This document shows, one piece after another, positions 2,656 to 40,641 of a stretch of DNA of 64,000 nt. This DNA comes from Erythrobasidium yunnanense (Eukaryota > Basidiomycota > Cystobasidiomycetes > Erythrobasidiales > Erythrobasidiaceae). Both the position numbers and the translations under genes were made by a program. The DNA lies in contig BCJC01000006.1 of the NCBI GenBank assembly GCA_001600175.1, forward strand, positions 1,379,968 through 1,443,967, given 5' to 3'. Numbering within the stretch: position 1 is the stretch's first letter; each line of letters starts with the position of its first letter. The notes beneath the pieces are model-generated. The model was not told the origin of the DNA. It was given only the letters and a program-made list of their open reading frames with translations, and searched no databases.

Positions 2656-4045
2656 ATGTCTAGGAGGAGACAATCAACCTCTTCGCGGCGGTCCTCCCTG
2701 GACAGCTCATCCAGCTTGCTAAGCTTGCGGGTAGTAGCACGTCCGACCAACGCATATCGAGGCGATCAGAGCAATACACGAGGACGGACAACGGTGGGCA
2801 GGACCCAGCTACAACAGTATGCAACTTACCGACAAGGAGTGAGTGACGCATCTGTATCTGTAGCTCGTGTGTCTCGCTAAAGTGTGTCACCTGAAGGGTG
2901 CTCAACACTCGACCAGCAGCCCTACGACCCTGCAGAGCGTTGCGCGTGGCGGTGGAAGGCAGGCCTGGCAGCAAACACAGACAAGACGACCTGCGAGGAT
3001 CGTACCGCTCCTTGGCGTCACCTCGGACCAGCTCGGTCGCGGCAATCGGTCGGGCGGAGGCAGTCAAAGCAGGCTTTCGACACAGCCAGATCGGTACTAC
3101 AATCTGAATCGCGGTGCGGGCATGTTCTATCCTTCTGAGAACGAACTTTGGCGCGAGGTCGAGCAGATAGTTAGAGCTCACGAAGCAGCAGTATCTGATT
3201 ACAGAGTTAACAGCACAAGACGCCGCCGCCCAAGACCCAACGAAGGCAGCAACGCTGACAATCACTCTGCATTCCGGAGGCGGTATGAGCAACGTGCGCA
3301 CCAACAGATGAACCTGGCTCCCCAGCAGAGGGGTCAACAAGCAACAGGCTTCGACCCTGGAGAATTTGCGAGCGCTCGCCTGCTCAACGAGTTTCCTAGG
3401 TTGCAGAATGACACCAACCCTGTCCTGTACGAACAGATCGCGGCCGACGACAAGCGCATCTATGAACAAGATGGACTCCTCTGGATGCGGACAAACCCTA
3501 CAGCAGATCCAAGGGAGGTTCCCCTCAATTATTCCACACCGTACGAGATCAAGCTAGTTGCGCCTGGCTCCGAAGAGCAAACATCGATCGCATATTTGAA
3601 AGTCAGTGAAGTTCGAAGTGGCTCTTACTGCGTACGCTACATCGAACATTACAATCGTACGATGCCATTCTGGTTGGGCGAGTTACACTCCACGCAAAAC
3701 CTTCGGAGCAAAGGCATAACACCTAAGCCGCCTCGATGCGGACCTGCTACAGATGCAAGCTACTACAATGCAGCAGGACCACCTGCGCTGCCCGGCCCCT
3801 ACGTTGTGCGACGAGCTAGCGACGAACCTCTACCTCTCTACTATGCGGAGGAACCGCCAGCGTATACTAGTCGCTCACGTCCGCCCAGCTACAGAAGAAA
3901 GCTGTCAGAAATCGAGGACCATGCAAAGAAGGTCGAAGAGTCTCAGCCGCAGTCTACCTTTCACTCAATACGACGTCATCTTCGAAAGTCTAAAGTGAAA
4001 CTCACAAATCGCATACGGCCACAGTCCACGCACCCAATTGTCTGA
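2656..4045 (+). CDS. Unknown Ser/Arg-rich protein, tandem paralog 1
   Basis: Not recognised. Model: exons 2656-2838 and 2897-4045, about 443 residues, intron 2839-2896 (GTGAGT..AAG). The N-terminal half is basic and low in complexity. The C-terminal half, from about 3370, carries a compact conserved block shared with the next gene: LLNEFPRL, NPVLYEQIAADDKRI, EQDGLLWMRTNPTADP, then VRYIEHYN, WLGELH and PKPPRCG. A tail with PPAY and PPSY motifs, possible WW-domain ligands, follows. There is no signal peptide or membrane helix. The block looks like a folded domain of about 170 residues because gaps and charged positions agree between the copies while the N-terminal halves do not. The first exon could contain another short intron that I could not fix. 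Function unknown. Confidence 0.65.
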
Positions 4046-4269
4046 TATGGAGATCTATATATCTGGAATTTATGCTGCGCACGCTTATGCAATAACTGAT
4101 TTTATGGCCTTTGATGATTCTTTGTGCGCTGAGTACAAGGGTGCATTCAAGTCCCTATCTATCTCCACCATTGTCACATGCCCTTAGATGACCCCTGAAG
4201 CTGACGCCCACGTTACAAGTGCCTTGTCCTAGTGCTGGTTAGCTTCACACACATTCGAAGTAAGACGAA

Positions 4270-6221
4270 ATGCCATACAACACTCGAAGACGCTATGACA
4301 GCGACAGCTCGTCTGAAAGTGTCTCGGTATCGGCATGTGAGTGCTGCCTCTCTACCTGCCGCTGCTACTCAGAGCTGAGTCTTGCGTCATATAGCCAGTG
4401 CTAGCTCGCAGGTAACAACCGCCTGGATGCAAGCGACAAGAGCGAGAGCAACACAATATGCCGTCGATCGATCACGCAGAGAGGAAGAGAATAGGCAGAT
4501 AGCTCGCGAGCTCTGCCAGCAGCTGGATCCGGATTTCATCGCTCCCCCTCGGAGGTGAACTAGCTGTCTAAGTCTTTTGTTGACGAACTATGACTGACTC
4601 GAGACTTTGGTCATTCAAACCCGACGCTTGTGGGGTCAATAGCCGTAGCTCATCGAGAATATCGGAAAGAGAAACTCGGACTCGTCAAGCTAGTGATACA
4701 AGCGATTCTGCGTTTTCTCAGAGCTCTTCCGACGATTCCTATATTGCTGCACGGCGACGACGACAACAGTCAGCTAGTGACAGTAGCGCCGACTTTGCTT
4801 CTTCCCAGAGCTCTTCCGATGATTCCTATATTGTTGCACGGCGACGGCTACAACAGCAACGACAACCAACCCGCCCAAGTCAAGGCTTTCGTCGACGTGA
4901 GTCTGCAGATAGCGACACTTCGGCTTCCTCGGAGAACAGTAATCGTAGAACAAGGCGGAGACTCACGAGTTCGTCTACTGACAGCGGCAACGACGACAGT
5001 GATGCTACCTCTACCATTTTTCGGAGTCTAAGACAGTCAACTCGACTGAATCATGGCCCTAGTCGAGTACGCCATCGCAGCTCATCAGGTAGCTGTTCTT
5101 CAGCTTCGTCCGGCGGCCGCTTAAATCACGCTGATGCGGCGACCTTAGCTTCCTCCTCTGCTTCTTCGTCTTCTTCGGGCGTGCAGATTTACGACAGGAG
5201 GAGACCCGAGCGATCCCCCTCTTTCTCAGACTCCTCATCCGCTTTAATCCGGCAGAGCTACAACAGACGAAGACACGAGCGATCACCTTCTTTCTCCAGT
5301 TCGTCGTCTGCTCCAAGTCAGGAGAGCTACTATAGGAGAAGGAGAGAGTCCTCCTCGTCCTCCTCCACCTCCTCATCTTCTTCACTCTGGCAGGGCTACG
5401 AAGGGGGAAGAGCAGAGCGATCCCCCTCTTCCGCCAGTTTTTCGTCGTCTTCGACTTGGCAGAGTTATGACAGTGAGGACGGAAGATACGAGCGGCGCAT
5501 GCAGCAGATGCTGGAAGCTGAATATGCGCTAGCTCGGCTGTTGAATGAGTTCCCCCGCCTGGAGAAGCACAGTAATCCAGTTCTATACGAACGTATCGCC
5601 GCCGACGACAAGCGAATTCGCGAACAAGATGGACTCCTTTTCATGCGAACAAATCCTACAGCAGATCCGAAGGAAGTCCCGCTCAACTATTCTTCGCCAT
5701 ACGAAGTCAAGCTAGTCGCTCCAGGGACGACAACGCAACTGACAACCCAGTCTGTCACAGTAAGTGACCTGCAAAGCGGGTTCTGCTGCGTGCGATACAT
5801 CGAGAAGTACAATCGAAAGGCCCCTTCTTGGCTGGGCGAGCTGCACCATTTGAATGAGCTTCGACACAAAGGCATCATTCCAAAGCCACCGCGCTGCGGG
5901 ACTGCTGCGGACGAAAGCTATTATCATACGGAAAACGAGTCCTTATTCCCGCAGCCCTACAAGGTGCGTAGACCTAGCGATGAACCTTTACCTCTATACA
6001 TGGAGGGGCCGCCACCTTACAGCAGTCGACGCAACTCTGTAGCTTCCTCAAGTGGTGAACTAAGCAGCTCGCGTATAAACGGCAATCGGGTCGCTTCGCC
6101 AGGTTCACCACCCATATACAAAAGAAAGCGGTCGGAAATTGGATCCTATAGGTCTCGGTCAAACAGCAAGAGCATGAGACTTACGCCTCAGTCGATTTCA
6201 ACGCCTCTTGTGACTGCGTGA
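4270..6221 (+). CDS. Unknown Ser/Arg-rich protein, tandem paralog 2
   Basis: Not recognised; same family as the gene just upstream and in the same orientation. Model: exons 4270-4336, 4395-4554 and 4643-6221, about 601 residues. It starts MPYNTRRRYDSDSSSESV. Long Ser/Arg tracts follow, including two copies of SQSSSDDSYI-x-ARRR and a four-unit 23-residue tandem repeat. From about 5530 comes the shared block (LLNEFPRLEKHSNPVLYE, AADDKRI, RTNPTADP, VRYIEKYN, WLGELHHLNELR, PKPPRCG), then a tail with PPPY and several Lys/Arg-rich patches. RS dipeptides and basic clusters would suit a nuclear or RNA-binding role, but that is only inferred from composition. Confidence 0.7.
5190..5465 (+). repeat. 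69-bp coding minisatellite, four units
   Basis: Four units of exactly 69 bp (5190-5258, 5259-5327, 5328-5396, 5397-5465), each encoding 23 residues that begin with Tyr. The pattern is Tyr, a basic run, E-R-S-P-S, a Ser tract, then a short Gln/Trp-containing end. Units 1 and 2 are closest; unit 3 has lost the R-S-P piece. A fifth Tyr at 5466 starts the unique region. The upstream paralog lacks this array. Confidence 0.85.
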
Positions 6222-6665
6222 TGATGGCCGCCTAACGATCCTCCTCGACGATTCGTAAATTCCGCAATCCGCGCAGGGTGTTGTCCGAAGACTCGGATGC
6301 AATGAGCGTTACAGTAGTCGTGGGCGTCGTCCCGACCATCAAACAGCGGAATGTTCCAACTTCTGGCATTCTCAGGCAGCTGCAGCGAAAGCCTTTGTTC
6401 CTGTCCGCGCACTCAGACGTCATCCTTGTGTTCATGTAACAATACGACACTGATCAGTTATATCTCAGAACCAAGATCTAGACCTGTGGATCTATTGACA
6501 GGCACAGTGACCCGCTAATATCGAAATTTCGTTTAGGACTGGCTCTTGTTTACGGGTGCCGCCACAAACAAGGAAGATGGCTGCACGCAAACAACGAGAG
6601 ATCTTCACTGGTACATTTCTGCTTCTGTTCCTGTTCCGCTTCCCTCATTCTCCTGCTTTCTCGCG
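6222..6665. other. Intergenic region before the MFS gene
   Basis: This 444-bp gap lies between two plus-strand genes and should hold the 3' end of the Ser/Arg-rich gene and the transporter promoter. The frame of the transporter is open upstream of its chosen ATG back to 6546, but that extension has no transporter-like sequence. I see no other gene. Confidence 0.4.
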
Positions 6666-8577
6666 ATGACTTCTGCCGACTTAGCGAAGGTTGAAGCCGA
6701 TATGAAGCCGACTTCTTCCCAGCAGTCTCTAGTGCCTTCTAGTCTGTCGGAGGATTCTACCATCTCTGGCACCCCGCCTGTCGAGAGCGAGAAGGCCAAG
6801 ACCGTCGAACACCACCATCATCTCGCTGGCCTTGAGAAGGTTCTCACCCATACTATCAGCCGAGTAGAGCCTAGAACAGATGGGAAGATTGTCCTGCACC
6901 GCAAAGACTGCTACGACGAGCTTGGCTATAAGTTCTCCTCCACCAAGAAATGGTGGATCTTGTCTGTCATCTTCGCCATTCAATGCTCAATGAATTTCAA
7001 TGCTGGTGTATATGGGAGCGCTGTACCTCAGCTCGAAGCGGAGTATGGTCTCTCTTCCCAGACTGCAAGACTAGGTCAGGGTCTCTTCCTGATCTGCTAT
7101 GCCTTCGGATGCGAGGTGAGAGCAACGCGTTGTCTTTAAGCCACTTTGATAGCTAACATCCGTCCTCTTGCAGCTCTGGGCGCCTTTCTCCGAAGAGTTC
7201 GGTCGATGGCCAATCATGCAGCTATCCTTATTCTTCGTCAATATCTGGGCTCTCGGCTGTGCTCTGGCCCCCAACTACGCTTCAATCGTCGTCTTCCGTG
7301 TTCTGGGAGGTTTCTCAAGCGCTGGTGGATCCGTTACGCTGGCCTACATCGCCGACATGTTCGAGGCCGAAGTCCAGGGTCAGGCTGTGGCATTCGTAGT
7401 CTTGTCTTCTGTAGGAGGGTCTGTCCTCGGTCCTATCTTCGGTAGGCCAGCTAGCTAGGAAATCGATCGAGCTCCACTGACGTACGTCCGAACAGGTTCG
7501 TTCCAGGCTAGATACCTCGGATGGAGATGGAACTTCTGGCTGCAGGTTCGTCTATTCGGGCTTCATCATCTTCTTCACTGTTATTGATCCTCTGTACACA
7601 GCTCATCTTCGGCGGAGCGGTTCAAGTCCTCCACTTCTTCACACCCGAGACCAAAGAATCCATTATCATGCAGCGATCTGCGAAGCGTCAGAGAGCTGAA
7701 GGCAAGACGAATATCTATGCCCCAGATGAGCTGCGCGAGCGGGAATGGGATATCAAGGAAGTTCTCATGACGATGTCGCGACCTTTTGTCATGTTCGCGA
7801 CTGAGCCTATCGTTCTCGTAAGTGCTTTTATGTCCATATAAAGTGTCCAGCGTGGCTGAATGATGGTTTCACCAGTGTCTATCCCTGCTATCCGGTTTCA
7901 GCGATGCTCTTATCTTTACCTTCCTCGAGGCATACGGACCTGTCTACTCACAATGGAACTTTGGAATCATCGCTCAGGGTCTAGCTTTCGTGGCCATCGG
8001 TGTCGGCTACCTCCTCGCGTACTTCTCTTGCTGGCCTTTCATCAACCGTATGGAGCGGGACCTAGCTAAGGATCCGGATGCAGTAGCTCCTGAAAGAAGA
8101 CTATATTGGCTGCTCTACACAGCTCCTCTTCTTTCGATTGGTCTCTTTGGCTTCGCTTGGACGTCGACTGGTCCTCCCATTCCTTGGATCGCAAGCTTGC
8201 TCTTCACCGCACTAGTCGGCATCAGCAACTACGTCATCTACTTCTCGACTGTCGACTATATGATCAGCTCGTATGGGCCCTTCTCAGCATCTGCAGTTGG
8301 CGGAAACGGATTTGCACGAGATTTCTTGGCAGGTATCGCAGCTTTCTACGCTGGACCCCTCTACTCCAACCTTAGCGTCTCTCAGCCTCTGGCGTGGGCT
8401 AGTACCCTCCTCGGCTGCCTTGCGGTCCTCGTCACCATCCCTATCTACGTTTTCTACTGGAAAGGTCCGCAGATCCGCGCTAGATCCAAGTTTGCTCAGA
8501 CTCTGGCTTCCGACAAGAAGACAGAGGGGAAGCAGAGCCAGCAAGAGGAGTCGGAGAAGACTGCTGGACATGTTTGA
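6666..8577 (+). CDS. Major facilitator superfamily transporter (DHA1-like)
   Basis: Plasma-membrane proton antiporter of the drug/polyamine type. Model: exons 6666-7115, 7174-7441, 7496-7545, 7602-7817 and 7876-8577, 561 residues, in the usual range. A Ser-rich cytosolic N-terminus of about 95 residues leads into twelve hydrophobic segments. The family signature between helices 2 and 3 is seen as WAPFSEEFGRWPIM, followed by GFSSAGGSVTLAYIAD in helix 5. A charged central loop (about residues 265-310) separates the halves. The tail is Lys/Glu/Gln-rich. The start was chosen at MTSADLAKVEADM because upstream codons do not resemble the family. The substrate cannot be read from sequence. Fungal relatives include multidrug and polyamine exporters. 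Confidence 0.85.
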
Positions 8578-37008: not shown

Positions 37009-39367
37009 CTAGATTTGCATACTTCTAGCTTTCGCGACAAGCACCTATTCGAAAAGCGTTAGCCTCTTCATCTCAGGCCATAACTCCAGTCCTCACCTCT
37101 GGAAACTCCTCGGTCAGGTGCAACAAGCTCTTCAGGTCTTCCTCATCGAGCAGCGTGACTGTCTTTTTCGAGATATTCTTGATAGGTTCCGGGTCGTTGG
37201 AAGCTTTGAAGAGCTTGAATACCTTCTCGCCGATCTTCTGCTTTCTATTTATCCACAAAGGGCGAGTCTTCATCAATGAAAGCGGTGTATATTGATCTAT
37301 GTGAGGGCGGACGTACTGCTGAGATACTTTAAGATGCTTGATCGACTCCAGGAACGTCTCCGCTCCTCGCTTTACCTCCAATCTTCGCTCCGCAAGAAAA
37401 GGTGGTGAATTGCCAGAATCTGCTAGGTCCATAATGCCTTTCACAGAGAATCTGATGACGGTATTGAAGTCCTTTGACTTGTCATCGGCTCCCCCGGCGG
37501 CTCTGATTTGTGTAGGACTAGAAGACTTGAGAGATGTAGGAGACTGGTTGGGTGAGGAGATGGCGGCTGCTACGGAAGTCAGGACGGGATTGGTGTCTTT
37601 GCTTGAAGAGGGTGTGTAGAGCTACGAATGACCATGAAAGCGCTTCATCAGATCGAATTCCTCACGATGAGCAGAGAGGGAGGAAGAGTGTATTTTACCT
37701 TCAGCAGTTGGGACACATCGTACCTCTTGTCCTCCGGTGCAGCCCCAGCCTGATATTTCCCAGTTTTATACTGTGCAATTTTCTCCCTTAGAAATTCTTC
37801 ATCAAAGCAGCATCTCTTCCTATCCTCTTCCTTTAGGTATCTAACCAGATTATCCGCGATCTCAGTCTTCTCAGCTTCTGTTTCTGACAAGTCAAGATCC
37901 GCCAAAGCTACTAGGAGTAATTTGCGATGTTTGAGAACGGTAGTAAAGTTTGCTGCACCCTGAATCTTGTTCAACTGGGGAGAGACTTCTGGCGAAGTCG
38001 TAGTTGTGTGGGAAGATAAAGATGGATCGGACGGTGATGAGGATCCGAAAGATGTCTCTTGAGCGTGATTTGTGCGGGATGACTACGAAGAGAAGAGGTG
38101 ACCCAGATTCTACTGTCAGCTGTTCATTCAAGAAAACGGTGAAACAAGGAAAGTATCGTTCACTTTGTTTGCAGAAGTGGCTTCTGTTCTGCTTGCCCCT
38201 CTCTTGTGAGTTCCCTTATTGTCGGGGGTTTCCTCTTCTCTCACAAACACCATCTTCGTCTCTGCATCCCCCGACAATTCCCACAGTCTGACTTGCAAAG
38301 TGTGTCCTTGGATGATCTTGCCGTTCATACTCTCTACAGCTTGTTCCGCGACATTCCTCTCTTTAAAGCGAACAAGTGCGAGTCCTGCACTTTCTTGAGT
38401 AGCTTGATTGAAGGCTACCGCAGTCTCTTCGACCTTGCCGAATTTGGAGAATACTTGTAGGAAATCGCGAGAGCGCCATTCTGAAGGATAATGCTGGATG
38501 ATTATACGCGTAGGATCAATGATCTTGAGAGGTGCAGAAACGCTGCGGACCATTGTTGGTGCGGTAGAACCCGAGTTGGTGGACGACCACTTGCTACTGC
38601 CATTGCCAAGTGACGTCGAAGGATTGCTTGCCCAGTTACTCTCGACCTGAGCACTGACTGTTCTTCTCATACCCGTAGCAGTGGCAGCAGCACTACCATT
38701 GAAAGGCCTAGGGTTCTCGAAGCTATCCTTCTGATCGTACTTCGAGGGAGCACGAACGAGGATCTGATACGTCCCTATGGATTCATAGTTCATCTCTTTG
38801 CATGCTTTATCGGCGTCGTTGGTGGAGTAGTAGATGACTTTGCATACGCTTGGCTGGATAAAGACACAGGTATGGATGGGGCCTGGGCATACCGAATCGC
38901 CCCTCAGCTGGGATAGCGTGAGGAGAGGGAGGGACTCACCGAATCGCTCAAACGTATCGTACACCTGTGCTGCTGTGTGGTCGGGAGGTAGCTCCGAGAC
39001 GTGTATGAGCTTTCCTCCTACTGGGACTTGGAGGACATCGCCTTTGCTGCTACTGCCTGGCGTTTCTACGAGAGTGACAGTGCATGGAGGAGTGCCAGTT
39101 CCTTGAACAGGGAGGTCCTTAACGAGTGCGTACGCCTTGCGGGCTGCGATTAAGCCCAATCAGCATGGCTGTTTCGACAGGGTAGTGGGACCGCGCACCT
39201 TTGTGGACGTTCTCAAACTCCACGCGCTGTATTGTATCGCTGTCATCATCATCAGTGAGCAGTCTGAATCTTGTGCAGTCTTTGAGGATGTCGATGAGCC
39301 GTTCTCGGGGGACACCACCAGCGTTGGATCCATCATAGATGATGTGCAGAATTAACGCAGAACTCAT
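37009..39367 (-). CDS. RRM4: Rrm4-like endosomal mRNA-transport protein (3 RRM + MLLE domains)
   Basis: Rrm4 binds mRNAs and, through C-terminal MLLE domains, hooks onto Upa1 on early endosomes moving along microtubules. Model: exons 39199-39367, 38164-39143, 37699-38082, 37097-37621 and 37009-37044, 697 residues. RRM1 is at about 3-75 (VEFENVHKARKAYALV), RRM2 at 101-190 (KLIHVSELPPDHTAAQVYD) and RRM3 at 269-345 (RIIIQHYPSEWRSRDFLQVF). A first MLLE-like domain lies at about 434-488 (LKEEDRKRCCFDEEFLREKI) and the last at about 625-693 (KQKIGEKVFKLFK, LLDEEDLKSLLHL). Both resemble the two C-terminal MLLE domains of Ustilago Rrm4 as I remember them. In-frame introns at about 38849-38893 and 37227-37316 are possible, so the length may be somewhat smaller. 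Confidence 0.8.
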
Positions 39368-39381
39368 CGCAGCAGCAAAAG

Positions 39382-39426
39382 TCAGCTGTCAGTCAGGAGC
39401 AGAGAGTAGTCGTCGTCGTCCATCAT
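39382..39426 (-). promoter_or_regulatory. Possible upstream ORF of RRM4
   Basis: A 14-codon frame (MMDDDDYSLLLTDS, then stop) ends 14 nt before the RRM4 start codon on the same strand. If the transcript starts upstream of it, it could lower translation of RRM4. It may equally be part of an unrecognised 5' exon or lie outside the transcript. Confidence 0.3.
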
Positions 39427-39728: not shown

Positions 39729-40641
39729 ATGCACGGCGACGATGCGCCAGACCATATGATACATCTCGATGCTCTGCGACATCTACCCGCCAAACTCGCT
39801 GGCAATTATACACGCTTTGTTCTGCTTTCAGACACCCATGCACACACATTCAAGGTCCCAGACGGCGATGTTCTAATCCACGCCGGCGATCTGACGGTTC
39901 GCGCACACTTTACCCTCATGCCCTCAACCTCGCTGATCATTGTAACAGGAACGAGGCAGTATAGCAGAGCTGAAGCGGACCATCTCGTGGCTTTCCTCCC
40001 TCCCTCATCCCCAGAAATTCGTAATTGCCGGCAACCACGATCACTGCCTTGACGAAGACTCCCTCCGTGGAGTACGAGGGCTGGAGAAAGAATACAGCAC
40101 TGCAATAGCGCTCTTCAATACGCCAGAAGCTAAGCGGGCAAATCTGAAATATCTGAAAGACGACGCTGCGGAAATACATATTCCAGGAGAGAAGGAGAAG
40201 ACATGGAAAATTTGGGGATCGCCGTGGAATGCTGCGTTCTGTAGTATGGCTTTCAATGTTCCGCGAGGGAAAGCCTCACAAGGTGAGCTTACTTTCCTTA
40301 TTTACATACAAAGCATCCGCTAAGTGAGAGCAGCAGAGCTCTATTCGCATATTCCAGACGACACCGATATTCTAATCACCCACGGTCCACCGCACGGCAT
40401 CCTGGACCATCTTCGTTCAGGACAGAGCGTAGGCTGTACCGCTCTCCTTGAACGAACACTGCAGATACAGCCGCGCATGCATGTCTGGGGTCACATACAT
40501 GAAGATAGAGGAGTGGTTAGTGATCATAAAGAGGCGCAAGGGACGGTGTTCGTGAATGCTGCGAATGCGGGAACGCATAGAAGACCGAGAGTATGGGGAA
40601 CAGAGGAATACCAGCCTATAGTCATAGATCTCAAGCATTAG
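39729..40641 (+). CDS. Calcineurin-like metallophosphoesterase (MPPED type)
   Basis: Two-metal phosphoesterase. Model: exons 39729-39896, 39949-40282 and 40334-40641, 269 residues. All five metal-binding blocks are visible in order: LLSDTHAHT, HAGDLTE, VIAGNHDHC, ILITHGPPHGILD and HVWGHIHEDRG. The spacing and the WKIWGSPWNAAF stretch fit the class of small MPPED/C1-7-3 phosphoesterases. The first ATG gives MHGDDAPDHMIHLDALRH; a second ATG at 39756 is possible. No targeting signal; probably cytosolic. The substrate is unknown for most fungal members. Its stop faces that of TFB2 across 261 bp. Confidence 0.87.

What the first reader, a model, noticed from the sequence alone, without database searches (positions are those of the whole stretch)
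37009..39367. An Rrm4-type endosomal mRNA-transport protein with diverged RRM1 and a reduced MLLE set
The order three RRMs then MLLE domains is seen in the sequence. Established knowledge: in Ustilago maydis Rrm4 binds mRNA and its C-terminal MLLE docks to Upa1 on moving endosomes. Here the last MLLE (KQKIGEKVFKLFK, LLDEEDLKSLLHL) and an earlier one (LKEEDRKRCCFDEEFLREKI) can be aligned by eye with the two C-terminal MLLEs of Ustilago. I see no counterpart of the Ustilago N-terminal extension or of the first, cryptic MLLE, so this may be a minimal version of the transport platform. It would be useful for working out which parts of the protein are essential.
Basis: partly seen in the sequence, partly recalled or inferred. 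Interest (0 to 1): 0.7.

Follow-up and report, generated by a model that had tools for sequence, protein, structure and literature searches.

The report
Trimmed-down endosomal mRNA transporter, Rrm4 type
This fungal gene encodes a relative of Rrm4, the protein that carries mRNAs on moving endosomes, but with one docking domain fewer than the model species and with unusual RNA-binding domains, in a genome that also encodes its likely endosome anchor and a second, unexpected protein with a related docking domain.

Summary
It is an Rrm4 relative. Residues 617-673 match Ustilago maydis Rrm4 MLLE3 (39% identity, pocket glycine kept) and 410-471 match MLLE2 (33%). Where MLLE1 should lie there is a low-complexity linker, against the published view that three MLLEs are conserved. 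The genome also encodes a Upa1-type anchor (ankyrin-FYVE-RING) with one acidic FQYP motif like the MLLE3-binding PAM2L, a kinesin-3, and an unexpected second RRM protein ending in an MLLE2-type domain. Most likely MLLE3 docks to that single motif; this is inferred by homology, and RNA binding is uncertain. AlphaFold without an alignment was uninformative. A new variant of a known kind.

The parts
37009..39367 (-). Rrm4-type gene, 6 exons: 39367-39199, 39143-38940, 38882-38164, 38082-37699, 37621-37097, 37044-37009; 678 aa
   Evidence: spliced model; in the whole genome the only other matches are eight weak ones within aa 98-335
39049..39358 (-). RRM1-like domain (about aa 4-88), strongly diverged
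   Evidence: position and strand/helix pattern by eye only; no Pfam RRM or PDB RRM match
38749..39015 (-). RRM2 (about aa 100-169), spans intron 2; no RNP aromatics found (H104 at RNP2-2; the aligner leaves a gap at RNP1-3)
   Evidence: Pfam RRM_1 1e-7
38278..38517 (-). RRM3 (about aa 247-326); RNP1 AGLALVRF with Leu292 and Leu294 at the aromatic positions, Ile252 at RNP2-2
   Evidence: Pfam RRM_1; ELAV/Hu RRMs are best PDB hits
37951..38274 (-). aa 328-408 (interrupted by intron 3): low-complexity linker where MLLE1 would be expected; 53% STPGNQ, 11% hydrophobic
   Evidence: hhalign probability 0.1 against the MLLE2 profile
37762..37947 (-). MLLE2-type domain (aa 410-471), Arg417 at the place of U. 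maydis Arg573 (place counted from Gly736 in the PDB chain)
37262..37477 (-). helix-rich block aa 541-612 before MLLE3, identity unknown; candidate for the extra helices of a seven-helix MLLE3
   Evidence: helices in a low-confidence model; no significant sequence match
37097..37249 (-). MLLE3-type domain, main part (aa 617-667), pocket Gly623
37018..37044 (-). MLLE3-type domain, last helix, in exon 6 (aa 668-676) after a 52-nt intron
39382..39426 (-). short upstream open frame (14 codons, MMDDDDYSLLLTDS) ending 14 nt before the main start codon
   Evidence: expression and function not tested

Best explanation
The gene is the Rrm4 orthologue of this fungus: an RNA-binding adaptor with three RRM-like domains (the first only by eye) in ELAV-like arrangement that rides on early endosomes. 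Inferred mechanism: its last MLLE (MLLE3 type, pocket glycine kept) clasps the single acidic F-x-Y-P motif in the disordered stretch of a Upa1-type ankyrin-FYVE-RING protein, which sits on PI3P membranes; kinesin-3, with dynein (not searched), then moves endosome and mRNP together. Compared with U. maydis both sides of the contact look trimmed: MLLE1 is not found in the Rrm4-type protein, and the modelled Upa1-type protein has a short N-terminus and one motif instead of a PAM2 and two PAM2L. The RNA face is altered as well, since RRM2 and RRM3 lack the usual stacking aromatics and RRM1 has at most one. Shown here: gene structure, domain homologies, presence of the partner genes and of the motif. 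Inferred: the binding, the transport, the cargo.
For: MLLE3: only significant PDB hits are Rrm4 chains (3.1e-5, 1.4e-4, 7.4e-4); the two-sequence profile reaches PABP1 MLLE chains at E 0.007; U. maydis MLLE3 letters searched back into the genome find the window as the only match (E 1.8e-4). MLLE2. ELAV-type RRMs; a 2025 review calls Rrm4 ELAV-type (PMC12852828, passages). Upa1-type protein: Ank_2 6e-24, FYVE 1.6e-17, RING_2 4.5e-8, with DEDTFQYP at aa 699-706. Acidic(3)-x-F-x-Y-P has 2 six-frame matches in 20.9 Mb; one is this gene, the other lies in a 60-codon frame. The PAM2L2 peptide in the solved complex contains DEFIYP (PMC12518507, passages), and MLLE3 contacts a critical tyrosine absent from PAM2 (PMC12852828, section 10). 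One PAM2L suffices for interaction in U. maydis (PMC4466420, passages). Kinesin-3: KIF1B domain 2 kb downstream of a kinesin motor, same strand.
Against: No fold evidence: both models are low-confidence. The MLLE2 match alone is weak (E 0.68 in the PDB, with an unrelated hit at 1.1) and not reciprocal. In the MLLE3 profile search unrelated TIFA chains follow PABP1 closely (0.036). The published strict motif core (three acidic, FVYP) has 0 matches in the genome; the looser pattern was written after I had read DEDTFQYP by eye in the translation, so it is post hoc. At Vps8, a known second partner in U. maydis, no F-x-Y-P was seen on the coding strand; two [DE]FxxP matches (EFLSP, DFVGP) lack the tyrosine. 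Upa2 was not identified. All three RRM regions depart from the RNP consensus, so mRNA binding is not assured. No sequences of other fungi were available beyond PDB chains, so conservation across species is untested.
Confidence: 0.8

Rival explanations
1. The protein keeps endosomal docking but no longer reads mRNA directly: with the RNP aromatics gone it serves as an endosome-bound scaffold, and mRNA arrives through a partner such as Pab1 or the second RRM-MLLE2 protein.
For: RRM2 and RRM3 show 0 of 3 RNP aromatics and RRM1 at most 1, while 23 of 25 control RRMs of the genome have 2 or 3; the docking domain is the part with the strongest specific match to Rrm4; a second RRM-MLLE2 protein exists.
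Against: RRMs without RNP aromatics can bind RNA in other ways (general knowledge); 1 of 25 controls also has none and 1 has one. The RRMs of U. maydis Rrm4 could not be put beside these, so the loss may be old and harmless. In U. maydis RRM3 is dispensable for unipolar growth (PMC12852828, passages).
Confidence: 0.25
2. MLLE1 is not lost but moved: the helix-rich block 541-612 is a third MLLE in a new place, so the platform still has three MLLEs.
For: 33% hydrophobic and helical in a low-confidence model; it lies beside MLLE3.
Against: No match to MLLE2 or MLLE3 profiles; shuffle test: 636 of 2000 (MLLE2) and 405 of 2000 (MLLE3) shuffles reach the score, and for its first 30 residues alone 238 and 64 of 2000; no PDB match at E up to 10. 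U. maydis MLLE1 itself was not available for comparison. A seven-helix MLLE3 with two extra helices (PMC12852828) would explain helices there as well, though the test against the U. maydis stretch before MLLE3 was also negative (464 of 2000).
Confidence: 0.2
3. The gene is a PABP- or ELAV-like RNA-binding protein unrelated to endosomal transport.
For: RRM2-RRM3 best PDB hits are Hu/ELAV proteins.
Against: No Rrm4 RRM appeared among the PDB hits shown, so these hits cannot discriminate; the C-terminal MLLE hits Rrm4 and no PABP at E up to 10 in single-sequence search, and the genome's PABP-type gene with a clear MLLE lies on another contig.
Confidence: 0.05

Closest known systems
Rrm4 of Ustilago maydis (792 aa; three RRMs, MLLE1 451-529, MLLE2 571-629, MLLE3 712-791; PMC9249222 section 6)
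   Same: order RRMs-MLLE2-MLLE3; 39% identity in MLLE3 with the pocket glycine, 33% in MLLE2 with the arginine that replaces it
   Different: The RRMs themselves could not be compared here.
Upa1 of Ustilago maydis versus the gene at G000:C2 in locus L031
   Same: ankyrin repeats, FYVE and RING in one protein; an acidic F-x-Y-P motif upstream of the FYVE domain; U. maydis has a PAM2L at 948-958 (its order relative to the ankyrin repeats is recalled)
   Different: 1028 aa in my model, about 110 aa before the ankyrin repeats by eye (Pfam's best ankyrin stretch on the exon begins near aa 156), no PAM2 and no second PAM2L-like motif seen; FQYP instead of FVYP/FIYP. The modelled first exon is only 8 nt, so the start is tentative.
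PABP MLLE
   Same: MLLE superfamily (profile E 0.007)
   Different: not hit by the single sequence; PAM2L, not PAM2, is the partner motif of Rrm4 MLLE3
Second gene at G000:C4:2243394-2245008 (minus), at least 458 aa
   Same: RRM_1 (42.4 bits) and a C-terminal domain whose best PDB hit is Rrm4 MLLE2 (6.7e-4)
   Different: no MLLE3; ends just after the MLLE2-type domain; 5' end not settled

Membership tests
Rrm4 (endosomal mRNA transporter) | three N-terminal RRMs | tested here: inconclusive
   RRM2 and RRM3 met (Pfam); RRM1 not found by Pfam or PDB search
Rrm4 (endosomal mRNA transporter) | C-terminal MLLE3 with pocket glycine (Gly736 in U. maydis) | tested here: met
   by sequence; Gly623. Fold not confirmed
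Rrm4 (endosomal mRNA transporter) | MLLE2 with Arg in place of the glycine | tested here: met
   by sequence; Arg417. Against: not the reciprocal best hit
Rrm4 (endosomal mRNA transporter) | MLLE1 (three MLLEs stated to be conserved, PMC9249222 passages) | tested here: not met
   aa 328-408 is low-complexity; a displaced MLLE1 is not excluded, and U. maydis MLLE1 letters were not available. MLLE1 is dispensable for Upa1 binding in U. maydis, so I treat it as a variable, not a defining, feature
Rrm4 (endosomal mRNA transporter) | binds PAM2L of a FYVE adaptor and shuttles on endosomes | not testable with these tools
   adaptor candidate and motif present; binding and movement need experiments
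Rrm4 (endosomal mRNA transporter) | binds mRNA, RRM3 at UAUG (PMC12852828 passages) | not testable with these tools
   RNP aromatics absent in RRM3; function unknown
MLLE domain (PF00658) | passes Pfam cut-off | tested here: not met
   no PF00658 match for the window protein nor at the window in six frames; MLLE type rests on Rrm4 and PABP profile matches
Upa1 | ankyrin repeats + FYVE + RING | tested here: met
Upa1 | PAM2L motif, core three acidic residues then FVYP (PMC4466420 passages) | tested here: inconclusive
   strict core absent from the genome; DEDTFQYP keeps F, Y and P

The most novel reading that the evidence does not exclude
This fungus has split and trimmed the endosomal mRNA platform: one protein (the window gene) keeps the MLLE3 docking arm but has RRMs stripped of their RNA-stacking aromatics, and a second RRM protein carries a lone MLLE2-type domain with no MLLE3. 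The two could act as a docking half and a reading half, joined by the still unknown MLLE2 ligand, so that mRNA choice and endosome attachment, united in U. maydis Rrm4, have come apart.
Probability: 0.15. Interest if true: 0.75.

Novelty: new variant of a known kind. Interest (0 to 1): 0.5.

Why it matters
The literature that I could read takes three MLLEs as conserved and does not know what MLLE1 and MLLE2 bind (PMC9249222 passages; PMC12852828 section 10). A natural Rrm4 without MLLE1, facing an anchor with a single motif, would show which contacts can be dispensed with; a second protein with only the MLLE2-type domain isolates that domain and gives a bait for its unknown ligand. The odd RRMs make it testable whether the transporter must read mRNA with all its RRMs.

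Tried and rejected
Pfam MLLE search, six-frame and on the spliced protein and two parts: finds only one other gene, a PABP type; the window's MLLEs are too diverged for it, so this is not evidence against them.

AlphaFold without alignment on exon 5 and exon 4: mean pLDDT 40.9 and 54.0. I ran no fold search on them because low-confidence models give meaningless matches.

Block 541-612 as a third MLLE or as the extra helices of MLLE3: sequence tests negative. In one search the U. maydis stretch before MLLE3 was typed with one letter missing.

Strict PAM2L pattern: 0 matches. My first regular expressions for PAM2L and PAM2 (five FYVE loci) printed nothing and missed DEDTFQYP; I saw it by eye in that call's translation.

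Second whole-genome match of the looser pattern, C2:2292875: in a 60-codon frame, no gene seen around that frame, rejected. Vps8: found; no F-x-Y-P on the plus strand of L047, two [DE]FxxP matches without tyrosine.

Upa2: the only PAM2 match (C1:1562189, 18.4 bits, under the cut-off of 20) lies in a 1198-codon frame with two PAM2-like motifs and no GWW; not identified as Upa2.

Other FYVE genes (seven matches in six loci): Vps27-like (by eye, not scanned with Pfam), RhoGEF-FYVE and Cpn60_TCP1-FYVE (Pfam; the latter looks like Fab1), a split FYVE resembling Vac1/Pep7 (by eye), and L033, unassigned. In the ten pieces of five loci scanned, two hits of no weight apart (IBR 0.059, zinc fingers), no ankyrin or RING was found outside L031, whose ankyrin and RING pieces were scanned; other frames of these loci were not scanned.

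In the full-length PDB search of the second protein (153 matches, 60 shown) the rows shown are RRM proteins and Rrm4 is not among them; it appears as best hit only for the C-terminal 64 residues.

Naming the species: no tool used here places the genome; 'basidiomycete' is inference only.

Full report
Gene. The minus strand from 39367 to 37009 reads as six exons with five GT-AG introns of 55, 57, 81, 77 and 52 nt, giving 678 aa. Two splices matter. Spliced, RRM2 scores 32.2 bits with Pfam RRM_1 in one stretch; unspliced 21.6 in two. The last intron lets the final MLLE helix read in line with U. maydis. A whole-genome search with the protein gives 13 matches: five are the window's own pieces, eight are weak (E 1.2e-6 to 0.14) and lie within aa 98-335, the RRM part.

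N-terminal half. Pfam sees RRM2 and RRM3. Their best PDB relatives are Hu/ELAV proteins, which fits the description of Rrm4 as an ELAV-type transporter (PMC12852828, passages). RRM1 is seen by neither Pfam nor PDB search. To ask whether the RNA face is normal I aligned RRM stretches of the same genome with the three window regions. One search lists 48 RRM matches at E up to 1e-6, one of them the window's RRM3; of the other 47 I used 25, mostly the longer ones (18 fetched, 7 from loci already held), and left 22. At three positions (RNP2-2, RNP1-3, RNP1-5) 14 of 25 controls have three aromatics, 9 have two, 1 has one and 1 has none; two controls begin after RNP2-2 and are counted as lacking it. 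RRM3 of the window has none (I, L, L). RRM2 has none (H, a gap, K); by eye its RNP1 could also be read as C and V. RRM1 has one (Y) in an uncertain alignment. How U. maydis Rrm4 stands here could not be tested, because its RRM sequence was in no output.

C-terminal half. The exon-5 piece hits three Rrm4 chains in the PDB (3.1e-5, 1.4e-4, 7.4e-4) and otherwise one chance match at 7.7. Two of the chains are named Rrm4; the third, 7pze, is named only by a chromosome, but carries the same MLLE3 letters. The alignment keeps a glycine at the place of Gly736, the residue that holds the phenylalanine of the partner motif (PMC9249222, passages). A profile of the two sequences reaches PABP1 MLLE chains at E 0.007 to 0.032, with unrelated TIFA chains next at 0.036. 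Searched back, the U. maydis MLLE3 letters find the window and nothing else (E 1.8e-4). The exon-4 piece has the same Rrm4 construct as its best PDB hit, at MLLE2, but with E 0.68, next to an unrelated hit at 1.1; a shuffle test on that one pair gives 0 of 2000, and an arginine stands where U. maydis has Arg573. The 81 residues before it, where MLLE1 would be, are 53% S/T/P/G/N/Q and 11% hydrophobic and match neither MLLE. Devan and colleagues state that three MLLEs are conserved even to Rhizophagus (PMC9249222, passages); this protein appears to be an exception. A helix-rich block at 541-612 matches neither MLLE. A 2025 review reports that U. maydis MLLE3 is a seven-helix domain (PMC12852828, section 10), so this block may be an enlarged version of the two extra helices; that is inference, and the sequence test was negative (464 of 2000 shuffles).

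Partners in the same genome. FYVE search gave seven matches in six loci. One locus, on contig 2, splices to 1028 aa with ankyrin repeats, FYVE and RING, the domains of U. maydis Upa1 (PMC4466420, passages). In its disordered stretch before the FYVE domain stands DEDTFQYP. The PAM2L2 peptide of U. maydis contains DEFIYP (PMC12518507, passages), and the tyrosine is the feature that sets PAM2L apart from PAM2. The pattern three acidic, any, F, any, Y, P has two six-frame matches in 20.9 Mb, one here and one in a 60-codon frame; the pattern was written after the motif had been seen, and the strict published core has none. In my model the protein starts about 110 aa before the ankyrin repeats, with a first exon of 8 nt that is tentative; no N-terminal PAM2 or second PAM2L was seen. 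Kinesin-3 is present. Vps8 is present without an F-x-Y-P on the coding strand of the fetched stretch, though EFLSP and DFVGP occur. Upa2 is undecided; dynein was not searched.

The unexpected gene. Searching the genome with U. maydis MLLE2 letters, as a reciprocal test, did not return the window; its one match is a gene on contig 4 (E 0.0022, 42% over 31 aa). Its spliced part of 458 aa has one clear RRM (42.4 bits) and ends in a domain whose best PDB hit is Rrm4 MLLE2 (6.7e-4; shuffle test 0 of 2000 against U. maydis MLLE2 and 0 of 2000 against the window's MLLE2). It shows no MLLE3 match (279 of 2000 against U. maydis MLLE3). A paper search for MLLE domain, RRM, fungal and paralog together gave one paper, on the Ccr4-Not complex, and the listings show no title on such a protein (8 paper searches made in all). 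Subscription papers, including the 2019 survey of conservation in fungi (not held), could not be read, so I do not claim that it is unknown.

Judgement. Identity as an Rrm4 orthologue: about 0.9. Docking through MLLE3 to the FQYP motif: about 0.75, inferred. Loss of MLLE1: about 0.75. Altered RNA binding: open. The finding is a new variant of a known kind, with one surprise (the second MLLE2-type protein) and one testable oddity (RRMs without RNP aromatics).

Noticed in passing
G000:C4:2243394-2245008 minus (L068, L069): A second RNA-binding protein with one clear RRM, a possible degenerate RRM-like stretch (by eye), and a C-terminal Rrm4-MLLE2-type domain but no MLLE3; its 5' end is unsettled.
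   Followed up: partly
L031 (G000:C2:1978200-1988100, minus): Upa1-type ankyrin-FYVE-RING gene, 1028 aa in my model, with a single DEDTFQYP motif and a short N-terminus; its RING ends in CPVH, with His in place of the last Cys.
   Followed up: yes
window 39382-39426, minus: Short upstream open frame MMDDDDYSLLLTDS ending 14 nt before the Rrm4-type start codon; could regulate translation.
   Followed up: no
window 39729-40641, plus: Divergent neighbour that looks like a metallophosphoesterase-type gene (by eye), 361 bp from the Rrm4-type start.
   Followed up: no
L049 (G000:C1:1557500-1567400), frame 3565-7158: A 1198-codon disordered frame with two PAM2-like motifs (LSVAAPSFVP, LNGDAGSFVP); a candidate poly(A)-binding-protein partner of unknown identity.
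   Followed up: partly
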